From: Owenia fusiformis
Taxonomy: Eukaryota; Annelida; Polychaeta; Sabellida; Oweniidae
Reading direction: 5' to 3'
Length of the DNA: 64,000 bases
NCBI GenBank assembly: GCA_903813345.2
Contig: CAIIXF020000005.1
Span: 1,178,001 to 1,242,000, forward strand
Shown here one piece after another: positions 53,201 to 64,000 of this stretch. Position 1 is the first letter of the stretch, and each line of letters begins with the position of its first letter. A program made the translations under genes and the position numbers. The notes under the pieces were generated by a model, which ran no database searches, was not told where the DNA came from, and was given only the letters and a program-made list of their open reading frames with translations.

Positions 53201-55632
53201 TTCGCCATATGTCATGAAAAATGGTCTGTTTTCATTCATTCTGCTTTTGTAACAGTTTGTCTGATATTATGTTATTTATTTTAAATCTGGTAGAATTGGT
53301 TTTTAAGCATATTCTTCGCTGGTTGCACACTCTTTCACTCTGTTTTGTATTTCAAAATTGGACCATGTATTTTTCTGTTTGGTAGATGTCTTGTAATTGT
53401 GATGTAATGTAATTAACACCATAGCAACAGGTGTAAGGACCATACATGCTGTGGAGGTTTATAGGGAGGGAAACATTTTATCACGTAGCATGAAGACTCA
53501 ATGCTTCTGTAGCAGATAAGGAAGTGATTAGGTGCAATCTTGTAATAATTATTCTTGCATTTTTGGGATCAGTATCACAATTATCACAACCTCTTCTTGA
53601 ATTATATTTTACAGTTTCTTGATTTGAGGAGGAATTTGAAATAATTGACATTTGCAATTTTGAATTAAGGTGTTGCTTAATAATTGTACCACTTATGATC
53701 ATTATTGTTCCTGTTTGCCAATTCAGTTTATAAAGTTATCATAGTTTTAATGCCTTTTTATAAGTGCACTACTATATTTGGCACAATCCAGGACCGCACA
53801 TGGCTAATATATATTTTCAGCTATATGATCTAATGGACACTTTTACTTCACACCCAGCCAACCACTTTGTCCCTAATGAGAATTTGTTGCTCAAAATGGT
53901 ACAAAAATGAAATAGGATTTTATCTTTTACGTTTGTTTATTGTGATTCTTGCAGTATTAAAGGCTCCACATTTTATCTATTTTATTATCCTTAAAGGCTC
54001 TAATTTAACATCTGATCCTCCGTTATGATCTTGAAACAGATTAATAAGTCAAGCTATGTATTTTTCAGGTTTAGATTCATTTTTAGGCTTATTTGACTTA
54101 TTCAACTACCTTGCATAGATGCTGTAGTGTAACAAAGTCAATCAGGTATTGACTTAGAGATAACATTTTGGTTAAACACTTTCTTTCTGAACCCTCATTA
54201 TGATAGACCACAATAGAGTCAATATTTTATATTATATTGTTGTGTATCTGGTGTTAAGCCAATTTAGTAGCTTTATCAACAATAGTGATCAGTCTGTTAA
54301 CATCATTATTGAATGGATTCTATCTGCAGCATATTTTTTTGAAATATGTATGTGCAATAACACGGAGAATTTGAAAAAAGATAGTTGAACAATTCTTACA
54401 CGACTCTACACTACACCATACTACATACACACAGTTTTATATATCTGTCTAATTGTAAAATGATACAGACTAATATTTGTCAATTTGTATTATCAATAAA
54501 ACACAATAATTATATATTAACAAAATTACCTCTTTTGATATATAAAAGACCACCTTGATTTGTTCAAACTTTGCAAATGAGATGGTGGTAGCACTTAACA
54601 ATTTCATGGCAATAGTTATTTTAGTCCAAGCTACTAATCAATGTTTATTCACCTTTAAATTATATTATTTAATTACATCACACCAAATGGGCATGTTATA
54701 ATATTTGAGCCCTTGCCCAACTTTCCTTCTATTAATCTCTAGCAAAGTTTATTTTAAACCTGTCTTGAAAAAGTTAACTGGAGGAGCATGAGATGGAAAA
54801 ATAAATGTTGAGACTTGGATTCAAGGTAAAGAATATTTACTATTTTTTAAGATTTGATGAGAAATGTCAAAAATCTGACCAAATGGTTCATAACCTTTGA
54901 ATAAATTGAAATTGATATTGAATTGATAAGTGTACAAACTTATCACTTAATATGATGGTAGCTGGAAGCAAGAATACAAATGCAGACATTGAAATGATCA
55001 TGATATAATAAGAGCCATTGACCGAATGTGAATGTACCATTGATCTGAATGTTATTTGTACAATGTCGAGTTTGTTTGAAATCAATTTGTGAGCAGTGAA
55101 ACAGTAATAGTTTGATAAATGGATCAATAGATGGTTAAGTAAGATTCATGGTGAGCATCTGCGGCATTTTATTAGAGTTACATTTTCCAGGAGTCCAAGT
55201 ATAATTGTCTTCCAATCAAGTTTTTGGTCTTTCCTAATTCTCTAACCTTGTTTCCCAAAGAGAAGATAGAATGAGATAATGCAAAGTCTTGTTGCGAGAT
55301 TAACAAAATACTTTAAAGTAATGAAGTCGTCTTAAAGGCTATCTTTTCCAAAATAGAGTGAATTGCAATTCTACAATTCTTGAAATTCAATTGTGTTTGA
55401 ACGTTATTTTGGCAAAATCATGAACGACTATTGAATTTCAGGAATATTGATTGGAAATATTATCAAAAAGCACAAGTGGTTTAGATTCTCGGCTATACTA
55501 AGATGAAGAGCCTGCAAGTAGCATCCCGACCACTCTTTGTTAAAATTTTGATTGTGAATATATCTACATTTATCTGTTTTGTCTAATTTGTTTTTATTAG
55601 TAGTATATGTAGCGGTGGTACCTGCGAGAAAA

Positions 55633-55880
55633 GAGGCGTTTTGTTGACGCCACAGTTGCCACAGTATGTCAACAGTTGCCACAGTTACCTAAGACAACTG
55701 TGGTGGCGAAACGAAATGTGAATATTTGGAAATGAGGCGTTTTTGTTAACATGAGAATAATCATAAGAGTTGCCACAGTTGCCACAGTTGCCATAGTATA
55801 TCAACAGTTGCCACAGTTACCTAACATCTTAATAACAACTGTGATAGCGAAACGGAATATCAATAATTTTGCAAACTGCG
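55633..55880. repeat. Iteron-like block with GTTGCCACAG repeats
   Basis: Two diverged tandem copies of a ~100-140-bp unit, each beginning GAGGCGTTTT and containing several AGTTGCC words: 55654, 55674, 55768, 55777, 55786 and 55806, the middle three spaced nine bases apart. Each unit also contains the inverse CAACTGTGGTGGC or CAACTGTGATAGC, so a stem-loop can form. It lies next to the membrane-finger and polymerase genes and may mark the terminal or origin region of that unit (inference). Confidence 0.7.
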
Positions 55881-56103: not shown

Positions 56104-56767
56104 TCAAATATGTACACGCATATGACTGTGTAAACCTATTCGCGATCCACAATCTCGATCACAGTCCTTGCATATAAATGTAGCCAATCTAGGCGGATTT
56201 GCTGTCCAAATAATGACTGATTCTTCATCGCTACTGCTATTCTCAGCACCGTGCGTACTAGGTTGACTTGATGTTGAAGTATCCATCGAAACCAGATCCA
56301 TATGTCTCCATTCGTAAGCGCACATCTTCTTCTTGAGCAACGTAACCCCTGTAACACATAATGAGAACAAAAATAAAATAAAATTTGTATTAGCGTATTA
56401 TTTGATTTATTTTGCTAGAACTTGTTGTTACAGTAGCTGACTCAAAAAAACAAACTTTTGATGCAACGAATTTCAAAACATAATTACCTATGGCAATACA
56501 CATAATCACCACCAAGCATAGTACTCCAATGATACTCCCATACACAACAATTGAGTTGTATCCAACATTTTGCGTGGTTTCTGTATTATTCAAATCAGCG
56601 CTTGTTGTAGTTATTGATGTTATAGTATCATCATTTAATGTAAAGCAATTCCCGCCTGAGATATTCATTCCTTGAACACTGTTACATTGCCATACCTCCT
56701 GGCAGTTTACAATATATCCATTGTCTTCTTTAAAGCAAGAACAAAATACTGAACAAATACTAGACAT
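56104..56767 (-). CDS. Single-pass membrane protein with cytosolic C2H2 finger
   Basis: Two exons, 56488-56767 and 56104-56348, join in phase across a GT-AG intron to give 174 residues. The N-terminal segment is Cys-rich (CSVFCSCF, NCQEVWQC) and then Thr/Asn/Ser-rich with N-glycosylation sites. A hydrophobic segment of about 23 residues (SIVVYGSIIGVLCLVVIMCI) is followed by KKK, which predicts the C terminus inside. The tail ends in one classical C2H2 finger (CKDC, then H and H spaced 3, CX2C-X12-HX3H). No signal peptide is seen, so an N-out orientation by reverse anchor is inferred. The start is MSSIC; an in-frame ATG at 56797 is possible. It diverges from the polymerase gene, 694 bp between starts. 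Family not recognised; function unknown. Confidence 0.65.
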
Positions 56768-57461
56768 TTTTCGATGTTCTCTTCTGCGACCTACCAACTA
56801 ATATTACTTGGTAACAATGTACACTAACCAGAACTCGTTCACGCTCAATTAATTAACCTGCCTAATCGTCTTTAAGGTAATGCATTTGTAATGATTGTTT
56901 ATATTTACACAATCAGTAACTTTATTCAAAGTTATGGTATATGAGAAATACTGTGATTAAGTGATATAATCACATTTAAGGTAAACGAAATGGATATCTC
57001 CGCAATTGAGATTTTTTGTTGAGATTTCACAGCACAAGTTTTTTTTCTATAAATCTTTTAAATTTTCATTTCAAAATTGTAGTATTGATAAGTATGCAAA
57101 CTGAGAAGATAAAATCGCGTTCCATGAGAATAGATAATCGTCATTACAAATTCTGCATACTGTTAATTCATATCTCAATTAGATAATTCTTGTCATCTAT
57201 TTGAATAAAAGATTAAAAAAGCGATATAAGCATCCTTACAAAGTGTGGCATGATAATTATACATAATTTGTTGAGATATTTCATATCATTATTTGTTTAG
57301 ATTCTTAAAATCTGAAAGTAATCAGCATTTTAAATTGTGGTACAATGGAATTACATAATGTATAAACTAACAATTGATATGAAACCACTATAAAAGATAT
57401 TAAGGTGATCACATTTAATACACAATCTCTAGTGGAAGCGTACACAGGGTAGAAAGAAACA
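56768..57461. promoter_or_regulatory. Divergent intergenic region upstream of polymerase gene
   Basis: About 690 bp, strongly AT-rich, between two genes read away from each other. It should hold both promoters. No specific element could be assigned. Confidence 0.45.
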
Positions 57462-60400
57462 ATGGCTAGCAACATACAATACGATTGCGCAAATTGTGCT
57501 AAATCCTTTGACTCTAGCAAAAAGTTGCTTCAACACGATAGTCGGGTACACGGACCCACGAGTCACCAGTGCATTCTGTGCAAAAGAATATTCAAAAGGT
57601 TAGATGCTCTCAGGAGACACCAGGCTACATGCCCGGGAATCGGAAATGTAAGTATTACCTTTTATCATACATTTGTAATAATTATATAGTACTAAACACA
57701 AGAACATAGTGGTTCAAATATATATGGAGATAAATCTACATGGTCTATTACTTTTGAATTCAGAGTTTATTATTTTGTATAAATAATTTCAAAATGTATG
57801 TTTCCGTTTCTATGTGATGAATGTTTACTCATACAACTATACAATGTAAAAATGTGTATCTTAGAATACGTATTTAATGAGATTACTTTAATCATACAAT
57901 AATATATCCCAATCTTGTATTTTCTCATACAATCACCATGCTCTTTATTATTTCTAATTTAAGGAAGAAGAGGATAACTTCCCCATTACACCAGTGGCAT
58001 CAACCAGCAAAAACGAGAATGACATTGGGTTAAAACGAAAAAATCTGGATAGTGTTAACAAACAGTTTAAATTCAAAAAAAATAAACTAAGCTTAAAAAA
58101 GGGAACAATGAAAACAACATCTAGCCCATCAACAGATTTGAACTATGTCCGCAAATCCGTGATAGAACCCCCTACAATATCCAAAACACAAACTGTGGGA
58201 CCGTCGGTGGCCGACACGTCGCAACAGCAACCCGTACTTTGGAATCAAACAAAAAACTTCCAGAGATCTGTACCGGGTCCCGCGGTAAATCAAGTATCCA
58301 AAGCACAAACTGTGGGACCGTCGGTGGCCGACACGTTCCAACAGCAACCCGTACTTTGGAATCAAACAAAAAACTTCCAGAGATCTGTACCGGGACCCGC
58401 GGTAAATCAAGTATCCAAAGCACAAACTGTGGGACCGTCGATGGCCGACACGTCGCAACAGCAATCCGTTCTCTGGAACCAATCAAAAAACTTCCAGAGA
58501 TCTGTGCCGGGACCCGCGATAAATCAAGTATCCAAAGCACAAACTGTGGCACCGTCGATGGCCAATACGTCGCAGCAGCCACCCGCACTCTCGAACCAAA
58601 CAATCAACTTCCGAAATTCTGTGTCGGGACATGGACATGTGGCCGATTCAATTAAGCGAGGGGTTGCTATTTCAGCTAATGCAGATACTAGTACTTCAAC
58701 GGGCTCTGTTCGCAGTAACAATAAGCACCCTACTCCCTTCAATAATGGTGATGAGAATGAATTTTTGGATTTGTTCTCAGCATCAGATGTTGAGAGGAAC
58801 TCGATTCTAAAGGATTTGAAATCCTCTATGGGAGTGCAAGTGGAATTGCTCAAACAAATGATTACAAATCAGGTTAGTCTCATTTTAAGTCAAAGGTTTT
58901 AATAAACTAAAGTATCTTAAATAATAGTGTATCAACGGTTAACAATAGTATTAATAGATGATGCATTGTTACTATATACTATTCTTAGTATAATAATATG
59001 ATTTGATATATTTACATCATCAAATAACGGAATATTTAGTAAGCTGTTACAATAATAATATTAATAGATGATGCATTGTTGTATATTATATTTTTACAAT
59101 TTTGTTGTGTTTTAATACAATTACAGAATCAACTAACAGAACAATTGGTGAACAACACACACACAAATAGGAAGAGAAAAGAATCAAAGCTAAACCCCAA
59201 TCACCCACCACCTCCAGAAAAGCGAGCGCGATCAATATCATTCACGGTATGCACACTTTTTTACTTGCGTCTATCATAAGCCTTTGGAGGCTGACCGTAT
59301 AATTACGGGTGACACTGTAATAAATAAATAAATAAATAAATATAAGAAAATAATTAATTAAAAATATATCACTTTGAACTCACATGATGGACTTTCAATA
59401 TCTCTTGAAATCCCATGCTTACATGCATACATGTATTCAAGTTAATTGTAAATGCGTGCTAAATCATATTTAAGGTAATGATAATGATTTGCGTAGTTTA
59501 GAGTCTCAATCATTCATTTGATTAATTCAGTTACTTTCACTTTGCTATTCTCTTATTCATTTTATTTTTTCTTCTATTAACTATAGCTCGAAGAACAAGA
59601 TGATATTGATAGGGATTTAATCGAGATGGCTGAACTCACAGAGGCGGATTACGATGAAATCTCAGAGAGTGCCTGGGATAATGTTTTCAATACACCAAGT
59701 GCGTAAGTATTGCGATCAGTATGTTCATACTTAATAATAATAAATTTCAAATTGGATGCATATCTTGATAATTTAAGAACATATACGACTACTAAGTTTA
59801 ACAATCACAAGACTTTAACTTGAATATCCGTATCACAATATAGCATTTCATTAAAATGATCACTAGTTTTATTACTTTCTAAAATATGTTTAAATCTCAC
59901 AATCATTTACTTTTAGATTTGAGATATCTTAAAACAAATTTTTCTTTGATATTTTTCAGAAACATATACCTGCCGAGCGAAAGACTGTAGATCTCAGTTT
60001 AATAACAGGAGAGACTTGCACCGTCACCGAATGGAACATCATTTCCAGATTGGTGGTGCAATTAAGTCACCGCCATGGGGAGAGGATGACAGCAACAATG
60101 AAGATGATGATAATGATGATATCCGGGCACCTTGGATGAATAATGATGGATCAATTAACGAAGACCTCAAAAGGGAATATATGGTGAATAAAAAACTTAT
60201 TTTAGCTGATGATAAAGTAAATGATTTGGTATCCATTTATAATTTCCCCACCGCATCCAACATTTCTGCCAACGACCTTGTGGACTATTTTCATAGCGTA
60301 TACGATCAACAAAGTTCAGCTTTTAAATTCAATATATCGGTATCAATGATTCTAGAAAATATAGAGACAGATCGGTTTCGGTATTTTGCGGCTGGACCAA

Positions 60401-63400
60401 ATAATTTTCAATTTGAAACTCCGCTGCTTGTCTCAAATATTCACGAGTTGCAATTAGCATCAGATGAGATTAAACGACTTACAATCGAAAACTTTACATT
60501 ACCCTTGCGCGAAGATACAAAATGGAAATCTGCGTTAGTTACTAACATCCATTTTATAGTGTACCAAACTGATTATGTTATTTCAAACAGTCGGGTTGAT
60601 CTACCCGACTATATTCGAAAAGCAAAATCCATCATCAATTTGACCCAAAAACCGAGATCCAATGAGTATTATAAAGATAATTTATGCGTCTTTAGAGCAT
60701 TAACACTTGCAAAGGGCACTCCGTTGACTCCGACAAAACACTTTGAACATCATGTTTTAGAGTTATACTTTCAATGGAGACAGTATATGATAGATAATGA
60801 TAATCAAAGACAAACTGAAGTTCCCCAAAAATATTTAGATTATGCTGGTTTCAAATTGACAGATATTCCATTGCTCGAGGAATGCTTTCAAACATCTGTT
60901 TTCATATATGAACTTGAAGCTGATCTCACAGCTAAAACTTTATACCACAGTAGCGATGATTTTCCTACGATAATGCATTGCAATTTGTTTGAAGATCACT
61001 TGAGTTACATACGCAATATCAATACATATGCTCGTAAATTCCAATGTGGTACATGCACACAATTATTTAAACGTTTGGATATTAGGAATAAACATCAGCG
61101 TGTTTGTAAAAATCAAACTAAATTTAAATATCCAGGGGGATACTGGGGTCTCAATAAGACTATTTTTCAAAAATTGAATGATGTTGGCGTGCACATTCCC
61201 GAAAATGAAAGATTCTCTGAATACTTTACTTGTTTTGATTTTGAGAGCTATTTGAAACCCCTTCAGCAGGGAATCAACTCCGATGAAGCTAAATCCACGA
61301 TATTAACTCATGAACATATACCTGTGTCTGTTAGTCTCTGTTCAAATGTCCCTGGACATACAAACGCCCAATGCATTGTTAATGGCGATGATCCATCTGC
61401 TCTTGTTAAATCAATGGTTGAACGATTAACTGATATTCAAACTACAGTTTACGAAAATCAAATGAAAAGGTATTCTACTTATCTACAATCCCTTGACGGG
61501 TTAATTGAACAATGGTGTCCGTCTACAAACTCTGATAATGAGGATCTCACTGATCCATATGGTACAAATGAATTTCAAGACAAACTACAACAAACCAATA
61601 GTTGGTATCGTTTTCAGGAACGTTTACATCTAAATTTGGAGACTAGCTCTAATACTGATTCTGACTTTTCTCTTAGTGATGATTCTGAATCAGATTCTGA
61701 ATCGGATTCTTATTCTGATTCAAAAGCAGAACAATTATCTCATGAAAACGATGCATCATGCCCCCAACTTCCAAATATACACGATGTAAGTACAGTTTCG
61801 CATTCATCTCGAAAACAAATTACTGGAAAATTGAAACACATTAGATCACAATTTCATGATTATTTGAAACAACTAGTCATTATTGGATTTAATTCGAGTC
61901 GATATGATCTTCCCCTGCTGAAACAATATCTCCCAGAAGCCTTGAAACTAGATAGCAACCTTCAATTCTTGGTAAAGAAGAACAACTCATATCAATGCAT
62001 AACAACAAAAAATGGTTTCAAATTTCTGGATATCAGTCAGTTTTTACCCCCCGCCACTTCATATAAGCAATTTCTCAAAACTTTCAAGATCTCGGTTAAA
62101 AAAGGGTTTTGGATGTACGAATGGTTTCAAAATCCTGATCAACTTTATATCCAAACTATGCCAGAGAAAGAACATTTTTATTCTTCCTTGAAACAGTGCA
62201 ACACTTTAGAGGAAGACTATTTACAATGGGATAAGAACGGGCGATTGGGCCCTGAACCCGCAAATTTAGATGAGAACTATAGATATATGGTGGGGGTATG
62301 GGAAAGTTTTCCAAGGGAAACTAGAAATATCAAAAGTCTTTTGGAATGGTATAATAATCTAGATGTGGCTCCGTTTTGCGTTGCTGTTACTAAAATGATA
62401 GAAATGTATCGCAAGCAAAACATTGACATGCTGCGAGATGTGATATCTCTCCCAGGCATTGCAAAACGGATTTTGTTTAGATACGGCGAACAGGCGGGAG
62501 CATATTTCCCAATATTTTCTTCGAAATTTTCCGACACATATAAAACCTTCAAAAACAATATTGTAGGGGGTCCTAGCATTATTTTCAATAGAGAACATAC
62601 AAAAGGAGAAACATTCATAAGAAACAATGAAAACTTTCCTTGTGAACGTATACTTGGACTAGACGCAAATGCATTATACTTGCATTGCCTAGGGCGTGAG
62701 CTACCTGTAAATCGATTCAATTTACGAAAATTGGAGAACAATTTCCAAGTTATTAAAAACGAACGTTATGAAATGATGTTTACATGGGTAGAATGGGAAA
62801 ACCTCTTACCAGAGAATAATTACCTCCATAAAATGAACAACGGGGGGAGTGAAGTTAAAATTGGGAATTATCCAGTAGATGGATTTTGTGGTGAAAACAA
62901 TACCGTTTTACAATTTGACGGGTGCTACTTTCATGGTCATGATTGTTGGTTAACTAAGAAAGCCCGGTCTACGGATGAGGGTGAAAAACAATTTCAGTTG
63001 AGAAAGAGAAATACTGAAAAACGTGATAGTTTCATTAAAAGTCAAGGCTTTGAGTTGATCGTAAAACATGAATGCGAATTCAAAGCAGATTTGATCTCAA
63101 AAAACCAATCAGTTAGAACTTTACCTTGTGGTAAAAAAATCTCATTTTCAGAATTTGAAAAATCCAAACGTTTACCGTTTCACAAACGTTATCCCGGGCA
63201 AATTAATGATTCTCAAAAGATCATAGATGCTATTTTAGATGACACTCTTTTTGGTATGGTGGAAGTTGATATCAAAGTCCCAAAGTATTGGCCCAATGAA
63301 CAATTAAAAGATAAAGCACGAAAACAATTTGGTAGAGATGTCAGTCCCTGGGAATACTTTAAAGAGTTTTCACCTATTTTCTGCACAACAAATGTATCTT

Positions 63401-64000
63401 TCGAGGATGTTGGTGATCACATGCAAGAATATATGCGATCTCATAATCTTTCTGAAAAACCCAAAACAATGTTAGTGGGTGGGATGTCAGGCGAAAAACT
63501 ACTGATTACATCTAGTCTCTATCGCTGGTATATAGAACACGGTATTCAAACTGATAAAATACACCAGATTATTGAATTCGATCGCATGACATGCTTTCAG
63601 GATTTTGTCAAATATGTTTCTGATATGCGTAGGCAAGGGGATGCTAACCCCGATTTCGAACTGTTCAGTCTCATTGCAAAACTTATCGGGAATAGTGCAT
63701 ATGGGAGTCTGCTTACGTGTCAAGAAAAATTTAGGGATACTTTCTTCAGAAAAAACAAAGTCGAAGTCAGAAGAGTTATTAATACTCCTCAATTTCGGAA
63801 TCTAACCACCATTGAAAACCCCTTTAACTTCGAGGAAGGCCCAATGTTTGAAATAGAATCCGCCAAAAAGCAAATGGACTTGAATTTACCGGTGTACTTA
63901 GGTTACACTATTTTAAATCATGCCAAGGAATTTTTACTGAAATATTTCTATGATTTTATGTATGAATATCTAGATCATAACAAATGGGAGGCAATTGAAT
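57462..64000 (+). CDS. Zinc-finger type-B DNA polymerase (organellar/viral family), 3' end missing
   Basis: Five exons (57462-57647, 57964-58872, 59127-59246, 59587-59698, 59960 to the edge) join in phase; the last stays open for 1,346 codons, so at least 1,789 residues are encoded. Exon 1 has a C2H2 and a C2HC finger. Exon 2 has four 39-residue repeats. Exon 5 opens with a third finger (about 447-470) and has a fourth, C2HC, at 805-825. Then come exonuclease motifs FDFES (868-872), GFNSSRYD (1085-1092) and YNNLD (1240-1244), polymerase motif A as GLDANALYL (1342-1350), a VSR-like insertion (DGCYFHGHDC, 1429-1438, and HECEF, 1479-1483), FGMVEVDIKVP, and motif B KLIGNSAYG (1683-1691). Motif C (DTDS) should lie just past the edge. 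A Ser/Asp-rich insertion sits at about 1007-1040. Related polymerases replicate Maverick/Polinton-like elements and linear plasmids by protein priming. No stop or frameshift is seen. Confidence 0.85.
58180..58640 (+). repeat. 117-bp coding tandem repeat in polymerase exon 2
   Basis: Four copies (58180, 58297, 58414, 58531; the last diverged) of a 117-bp unit encoding 39 residues, with phrases QTVGPSVADTSQQQPVLWNQ and NFQRSVPGPAVNQV. It is clearly richer in G and C than the surrounding sequence. It keeps frame and the first three units are nearly identical, pointing to recent expansion or conversion. The peptide is low-complexity and probably disordered. Confidence 0.9.

What the first reader, a model, noticed from the sequence alone, without database searches (positions are those of the whole stretch)
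57462..64000. Apparently intact, spliced zinc-finger type-B DNA polymerase gene
Five exons with good GT-AG borders and consistent phase give a protein of at least 1,789 residues with four C2H2/C2HC fingers, three exonuclease motifs, motifs A and B and a VSR-like nuclease insertion. Known polymerases of this class sit in Maverick/Polinton elements, linear plasmids and viruses. A multi-intron copy with an N-terminal finger and repeat module is unusual. It suggests either a mobile unit adapted to nuclear splicing or domestication by the host. Absence of any stop over 4 kb argues for function.
Basis: partly seen in the sequence, partly recalled or inferred. Interest (0 to 1): 0.88.

Follow-up and report, generated by a model that had tools for sequence, protein, structure and literature searches.

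The report
Intact-looking Maverick provirus with spliced genes
The polymerase gene belongs to a complete-looking virus-like element (a Maverick, or Polinton) inserted in a marine worm's chromosome, and its polymerase and integrase genes are interrupted by what look like ordinary introns, which is unexpected for an element of this kind.

Summary
Five exons (57462-63999) encode 1,789 residues; the frame closes 524 bases past the window (about 1,963 residues) with motif C present. The gene is neither solitary nor domesticated: it is the polymerase of a 17,886-bp group I Maverick/Polinton in the annelid Owenia fusiformis, with AGTAGT-ended inverted repeats, a perfect 6-bp target duplication, integrase (rve plus chromodomain), ATPase-, protease- and capsid-like genes and six small frames. 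The protein carries fingers, a terminal-protein-like domain, an OTU-like domain, exonuclease and a palm with a Vsr-like nuclease. The surprise is splicing. A second full element (C8; polymerase exon 73% identical) has introns at the same four polymerase positions. A third (C7) shares with both an integrase intron inside the catalytic core. Most intron sequences have diverged while exons are constrained (dN/dS 0.06-0.14 where computable; dS near or at saturation). A tubeworm relative has the integrase uninterrupted at exactly that site. Passages of two papers describe intact vertebrate Mavericks as intronless and endogenous viruses as lacking introns. I rate it a new variant of a known kind. 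No RNA was examined.

The parts
55599..55843 (+). Left terminal inverted repeat, beginning AGTAGTATATG; right partner L011:4249-4484 (window-equivalent 73249-73484)
   Evidence: from the AGT start 3 mismatches and one 9-bp gap, counted by eye in the alignment
55593..55598 (.). Target site duplication TTTATT, left copy (right copy directly after L011:4484)
56390..56797 (-). Small element frame, 135 aa, with a hydrophobic stretch (by eye), function unknown
   Evidence: counterpart in the C8 element, 29% over 95 aa, (none found in C7); no Pfam match above cut-off
57462..57647 (+). Polymerase exon 1: two C2H2/C2HC-type fingers (57486-57551, 57570-57632)
   Evidence: C8 has the same two-finger exon, 25 of 61 residues identical, z 15.2
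57648..57963 (+). Polymerase intron 1, phase 0
   Evidence: C8 also has an intron directly after the two-finger exon; sequence not detectably conserved (z 1.6)
57964..58872 (+). Polymerase exon 2: linker with a 117-bp (39-residue) tandem repeat, 58178-58612
   Evidence: its last 33 residues are conserved in C8, 15 identical, z 8.3
58873..59126 (+). Polymerase intron 2, phase 0
   Evidence: same position in C8, z 0.7
59127..59246 (+). Polymerase exon 3: basic, proline-rich linker, 40 codons
   Evidence: C8 exon also exactly 120 nt, 19 of 36 aligned residues identical, z 6.1
59247..59586 (+). Polymerase intron 3, phase 0
   Evidence: same position in C8, z 0.7
59587..59698 (+). Polymerase exon 4: acidic linker
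   Evidence: weakest exon: 11 of 31 residues, aa z 3.1, nucleotide z 1.7; same donor GTGCGTAA in C8
59699..59959 (+). Polymerase intron 4, phase 1
   Evidence: same position in C8; some nucleotide similarity remains (z 3.8)
59960..63999 (+). Polymerase exon 5 (runs on to a stop at window-equivalent 64524); third finger at 59971-60042
60220..60570 (+). [quoted passage not shown]
60598..61026 (+). OTU-like cysteine protease domain; candidate catalytic Cys and His invariant in the 45-row alignment
61045..61107 (+). C2HC finger between OTU-like domain and exonuclease
   Evidence: three Cys invariant, His nearly invariant
61237..62364 (+). Exonuclease domain: Exo I DFE 61237-61245, Exo II N-x3-YD 61891-61908, Exo III Y-x3-D 62350-62364
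   Evidence: motif names recalled
62662..62679 (+). Polymerase motif A (D-A-N-A-L-Y)
   Evidence: name recalled
62797..63174 (+). Vsr-like nuclease insertion in the palm
63679..63705 (+). Polymerase motif B (KLIGNSAYG); motif C CDTDS lies at window-equivalent 64000-64014
   Evidence: names recalled

Best explanation
[quoted passage not shown] Shown: the ends, the target duplication, the gene set, the domain architecture, and intron positions conserved between separate insertions while exons are constrained. Inferred: the insertion is fairly recent (near-identical ends); host RNA polymerase II transcribes the element in the nucleus; the spliceosome joins five exons of the polymerase and two of the integrase; the terminal-protein-like domain primes DNA synthesis at the element's ends; the OTU-like domain cuts the primer part off; and the new linear copy is inserted by the integrase through its chromodomain and/or packaged. 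Because the integrase intron cuts the catalytic core, unspliced RNA cannot give a full integrase, so mobility would depend on nuclear splicing.
For: Inverted repeats plus 6-bp duplications in all three elements whose ends I examined (TTTATT, CATGTC, GGTGTT). Integrase rve E 3.6e-7 and Chromo E 1.4e-7; A32-like ATPase E 5.4e-4. tblastn of the element's pieces (17 queries) finds in C8 exons 1 and 5, both integrase exons, ATPase, protease, both capsid-like frames and all six small frames; in C7 the same less exon 1 and the 135-aa frame; exons 2-4 pass 1e-3 in neither. All four polymerase intron positions recur in C8 with GT-AG borders and the same phases. Integrase intron at the same site, 315, 211 and 114 bp, in all three. 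In the Escarpia relative L001 the two halves align to residues 27-164 and 165-374, contiguous exactly where the intron lies. dN/dS against C8: polymerase 0.084 and 0.059, integrase exon 2 0.144, minor capsid-like 0.118; major capsid-like against C7 0.069, against C8 pS 0.77, pN 0.11 with dS saturated. OTU and little-finger resemblances in the expected order. Vsr profile.
Against: No transcript was seen. dS is near or at saturation (infinite in 4 of 9 comparisons), so ratios are rough. Exon 4 and its donor are weak, and intron 4 keeps some similarity. Exons 2-4 have no tblastn match in C7, so the polymerase introns are shown shared with C8 only. Foldseek gave no PDB match at E<=0.001. Names of the capsid-like and protease genes rest on recalled resemblance, size and homology to the unannotated relative L001, not on a library match. 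rve and Pox_A32 scores lie under Pfam's curated cut-offs. In C7 the first finger exon's frame looks broken and a 1,255-residue foreign-looking frame lies inside the element, so not all relatives are intact.
Confidence: 0.88

Rival explanations
1. The polymerase is a domesticated host gene that has gained introns, and the neighbouring viral genes are leftovers.
For: Multi-exon structure, a long open frame and purifying selection.
Against: The integrase, ATPase-, protease- and capsid-like frames are also open and conserved. Inverted repeats are nearly identical and the 6-bp duplication is intact. Two further elements with different target duplications exist.
Confidence: 0.03
2. The 'introns' are decay: random insertions in a dying element, as gene-prediction 'introns' were interpreted in degraded vertebrate Mavericks (PMC8097293, passages).
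For: Insertions in dead copies can mimic introns; C7 is partly broken.
Against: Same positions and phases with GT-AG borders in two elements whose polymerase exon differs at 27% of residues. Exon 3 is exactly 120 nt in both. The integrase intron sits at the same codon boundary in three elements. Nothing is missing at that point relative to L001. Strong exon constraint.
Confidence: 0.04
3. The introns are real but used for regulated splicing: retention gives truncated integrase or finger-less polymerase products as a switch, for example between germline and soma.
For: The integrase intron falls in the catalytic core, and the finger exon is separable from the polymerase body. P-element splicing is a recalled precedent.
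Against: No RNA evidence at all; conserved position alone is expected of constitutive introns.
Confidence: 0.2
4. The element is an adintovirus rather than a transposon-type Maverick, that is, an infectious animal virus lineage with proviral copies.
For: PolB with OTU-like domain and integrase with C-terminal chromodomain, two of the features listed in PMC11071296 (passages).
Against: The third feature, a hexon reciprocally recognisable by BLASTp, could not be tested because no reference hexon was at hand. The Maverick and adintovirus labels overlap.
Confidence: 0.3

Closest known systems
Group I Mavericks/Polintons (Kapitonov and Jurka 2006, not read, as cited in a passage of PMC10328495)
   Same: Polymerase with Vsr-like insertion, rve integrase, ATPase-, protease- and capsid-like genes, AGT-type ends, 6-bp target duplication, about 18 kb
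   Different: Four introns in the polymerase and one in the integrase; 134 intact vertebrate elements were reported with intronless frames (PMC8097293, passages)
Polinton pPolB domain order TP - vOTU - exonuclease - palm (PMC11071308, passages)
   Same: Little-finger-like domain followed by OTU-like domain, then exonuclease and palm
   Different: N-terminal fingers and a long repeat-bearing linker encoded on separate exons; 'zinc finger' does not occur in the main text of PMC11071308
Maverick relative on contig QGON01000029.1 (filed as an endosymbiont of the tubeworm Escarpia laminata, probably host DNA; L001)
   Same: Polymerase 29-31%, integrase, ATPase, protease-like, both capsid-like frames (major 31%) and one small frame match
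   Different: Integrase in one 381-residue frame and polymerase in one 1,409-residue frame (cut off by the contig end on its N-terminal side); five of the six small frames not matched
Intron-rich mirusviruses (PMC12768974, abstract and passages)
   Same: DNA viruses with many spliceosomal GT-AG introns, read there as a sign of nuclear reproduction
   Different: A different viral phylum, of unicellular eukaryotes

Membership tests
Maverick/Polinton | Terminal inverted repeats with AGT-type ends | tested here: met
Maverick/Polinton | 6-bp target site duplication | tested here: met
   TTTATT; CATGTC and GGTGTT in the other two elements
Maverick/Polinton | Family B polymerase with exonuclease and palm motifs (protein priming inferred) | tested here: met
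   DNA_pol_B_2 hits 10 of 25 family members, not the window exon itself
Maverick/Polinton | rve-type integrase with chromodomain | tested here: met
   rve E 3.6e-7, 30.8 bits (cut-off 32.6); Chromo 31.7 bits (cut-off 25.1)
Maverick/Polinton | A32-like packaging ATPase | tested here: inconclusive
   E 5.4e-4, 19.9 bits, under the curated cut-off of 22.8; 70% identical in C8
Maverick/Polinton | Adenain-type cysteine protease | tested here: inconclusive
   162-residue open frame; the 91-residue part compared is 63-66% identical to C8 and C7; catalytic motifs recalled, no library match
Maverick/Polinton | Double jelly-roll major capsid protein | tested here: inconclusive
   448-residue frame, 79-81% identical in C8 and C7 and 31% to L001; no Pfam match; structure job never accepted
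Maverick/Polinton group I | Vsr-like insertion of about 140 aa in PolB | tested here: met
   definition from a passage of PMC10328495
Intact vertebrate Mavericks | Intronless genes (a reported observation, not a definition) | tested here: not met
   statement in PMC8097293
Adintovirus | PolB with N-terminal OTU-like domain | tested here: met
Adintovirus | rve integrase with C-terminal chromodomain | tested here: met
Adintovirus | Hexon reciprocally recognisable by BLASTp | not tested

The most novel reading that the evidence does not exclude
Owenia carries a Maverick lineage that has become dependent on the host spliceosome: its two mobility enzymes, polymerase and integrase, can only be made after nuclear splicing, and the integrase intron acts as a licence or switch for integration, perhaps tissue-restricted. 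Pipelines that call genes without introns would miss such proviruses or score them as degraded.
Probability: 0.25. Interest if true: 0.78.

Novelty: new variant of a known kind. Interest (0 to 1): 0.6.

Why it matters
Intact vertebrate Mavericks have been described as intronless (PMC8097293, passages), and a large survey of protist genomes justified prokaryotic gene calling by stating that endogenous viruses do not contain introns (PMC10120064, passage). Complete-looking elements with conserved introns indicate that this can fail, so spliced proviruses may be undercounted or scored as fossils. They would also tie the life cycle of this lineage to nuclear transcription and splicing, and the idea can be tested directly with Owenia RNA.

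Tried and rejected
Host domestication and decay were tested and rejected. Introner-type origin: the five introns were compared with each other, the window and the other fetched stretches; at E<=1e-5 no shared intron family appeared, only a partial internal repeat of intron 2 and a 47-bp piece of the integrase intron resembling the minor-capsid-like gene. Scans of IMG/VR with the exon and with the family alignment gave no relative (1 and 28 stretches matched a pattern, none confirmed). A PDB search with the exon gave nothing meaningful; with the family profile the 60 shown of 209 were zinc-finger proteins. PHROGs: best E 0.0062, an endonuclease family over the Vsr-like region. A protein search with the major capsid-like frame found 2 unnamed proteins among 4,735 candidates. 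The capsid fold was not modelled because the machine stayed busy. A whole-genome search with the inverted repeat did not complete, so copy number by ends is unknown. The careful tree did not finish; only a quick tree was read (30 rows, 24 of them chosen from the 120 proteins listed; window, C8 and C7 together with support 100; 13 of 27 inner branches open; C8 and C7 rows fill under half of the columns). The VIA-align list covers only chains that Foldseek ranked highest and tests few parts beyond residues 187-329. Kapitonov and Jurka 2006 is not held and is cited only through other papers.

Full report
What was claimed and whether it is there. The five-exon polymerase gene is there at the stated coordinates: borders GT-AG, phases 0,0,0,1, no stops in exons, at least five stops in every frame of each intron, and a sharp GC step (introns 0.21-0.28, exons 0.36-0.45). 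The residue count to the window end is 1,789, as stated. The window lies at G000:C5:1178001-1242000. The sequence to its right closes the frame at window-equivalent 64524, with motif C at the window edge, about 1,963 residues in all. A host WDR53-type gene in the window is 100% identical, over 92% of the query, to a protein of Owenia fusiformis on a contig of 42,456,855 bases, the length of C5; Owenia is an annelid.

What surrounds it. Inverted repeats lie at 55599-55843 and at L011:4249-4484. They begin AGTAGT, differ by three mismatches and one 9-bp gap (my count from the alignment), and are flanked by the same six bases, TTTATT. The element is 17,886 bp (C5:1233599-1251484). On the opposite strand, right of the polymerase, are an A32-like ATPase (E 5.4e-4, under the curated cut-off), an integrase with rve (E 3.6e-7, just under the cut-off) and chromodomain (E 1.4e-7), a 162-residue protease-like frame, and a 448-residue and a 152-residue frame that I take for major and minor capsid proteins, plus five small frames. 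The capsid and protease names are recalled resemblances supported by homology to L001, C8 and C7, not by a library match. A sixth small frame sits between the left repeat and exon 1, with a counterpart in C8 but none found in C7.

Why the introns look real and why they matter. A search of the same genome (49 matches; 34 of 139 candidates scored, so a lower bound) found two more copies open over the whole exon, C8 at 73% and C7 at 49% identity. Both lie in elements with inverted repeats and their own 6-bp duplications, CATGTC and GGTGTT, about 17.6 and 23.2 kb long. tblastn of 17 pieces found in C8 exons 1 and 5, both integrase exons, ATPase, protease-like, both capsid-like and all six small frames; in C7 the same less exon 1 and the 135-aa frame; exons 2-4 passed 1e-3 in neither. 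Reading C8 directly shows the two-finger first exon followed by an intron, the conserved tail of exon 2, an exon 3 of exactly 120 nt, an exon 4 with the same GTGCGTAA donor, and exon 5, so four intron positions and phases agree. Amino-acid similarity of these exons exceeds shuffles (z 15.2, 8.3, 6.1, 3.1 and 26.1), whereas the introns mostly do not (nucleotide z 1.6, 0.7, 0.7, 3.8; integrase 1.0 and 0.8). Exon 4 is weak (nucleotide z 1.7) and intron 4 keeps some similarity. C8 has two more introns in the linker; by my reading one divides a finger between its two cysteines. C7 has a finger exon whose frame looks broken, and its other 5' exons were not resolved.

The integrase intron lies at the same site in all three elements, 315, 211 and 114 bp, directly before the G-x-E/F of the catalytic core (motif recalled). 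In the tubeworm relative L001 the two halves align to residues 27-164 and 165-374, so nothing is missing or added at the intron (27% and 36% identity). Exons have been under purifying selection since C5 and C8 parted: polymerase pS 0.72-0.73 and pN 0.14-0.17 (dN/dS 0.084 and 0.059); integrase exon 2 0.144; minor capsid-like 0.118; in 4 of 9 comparisons dS was saturated and only pS and pN are informative. Separate insertions sharing intron positions means that the introns travelled with replicating elements; they are not scars at one locus.

Other Mavericks in the genome. L013 and L014 carry polymerases in single frames of 1,485 and 1,475 residues from a distant lineage, about 79% identical to each other in DNA. 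L015 and L016 carry a third type whose polymerase is split over several frames, with acceptor-like sites that match by eye. Intron-bearing and intronless Mavericks therefore seem to coexist in this genome. In the quick tree the window, C8 and C7 form one clade with support 100, apart from the mollusc and lancelet proteins.

What is known. Passages of PMC8097293 state that 134 intact vertebrate Mavericks have intronless frames and that this agrees with Kapitonov and Jurka 2006, a paper I could not read. PMC10120064 justifies prokaryotic gene calling because endogenous viruses 'do not contain introns', with one species handled separately (passage). PMC12768974 (abstract and passages) reports intron-rich mirusviruses. 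In the rows listed by ten literature searches and in the passages I opened, I saw no report of intron-bearing intact Mavericks. The searches listed only part of their matches and the library lacks most subscription journals, so this is not proof of absence.

Mechanism. Shown: anatomy, conserved introns, exon constraint. Inferred: nuclear transcription, splicing, protein-primed replication from the ends, OTU-mediated release of the primer domain, integration and possibly packaging. The strongest missing evidence is RNA.

Noticed in passing
L010:7891-8205 and L011:2288-2334: The integrase intron holds a 47-bp stretch 87% identical to part of the minor-capsid-like gene of the same element, as if copied from it.
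   Followed up: partly
L015 (G000:C5:29406001-29415000) and L016 (G000:C4:13081001-13090000): A different Maverick type whose polymerase also appears split by introns at shared sites; in L016 a reverse-transcriptase frame (992 aa) lies in one of these gaps.
   Followed up: partly
L013 (G000:C9:25123001-25132000) and L014 (G000:C8:11367001-11376000): Distant Maverick-type polymerases in single frames of 1,485 and 1,475 residues beside ATPase genes that match the window element's.
   Followed up: partly
P0019, P0023, P0055, P0065, P0079, P0094, P0100, P0102: Eight of the 120 listed relatives of this polymerase carry a NADAR domain (PF08719), an unexplained fusion.
   Followed up: no
L001 (QGON01000029.1) and P0072, P0075, P0088: Animal-type Maverick sequences sit in genome bins of bacterial symbionts (Escarpia endosymbiont, Thiodiazotropha), most likely host contamination.
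   Followed up: partly
window 58178-58612: A 117-bp repeat, 3.7 copies, 91% matches, stays in frame in the linker exon; by eye C8 has no such repeat there but two extra introns and a finger.
   Followed up: partly
L042:3214-6978: A 1,255-residue frame that looks by eye like a LINE protein lies inside the C7 Maverick near its small 116-residue gene; it was not scanned.
   Followed up: no
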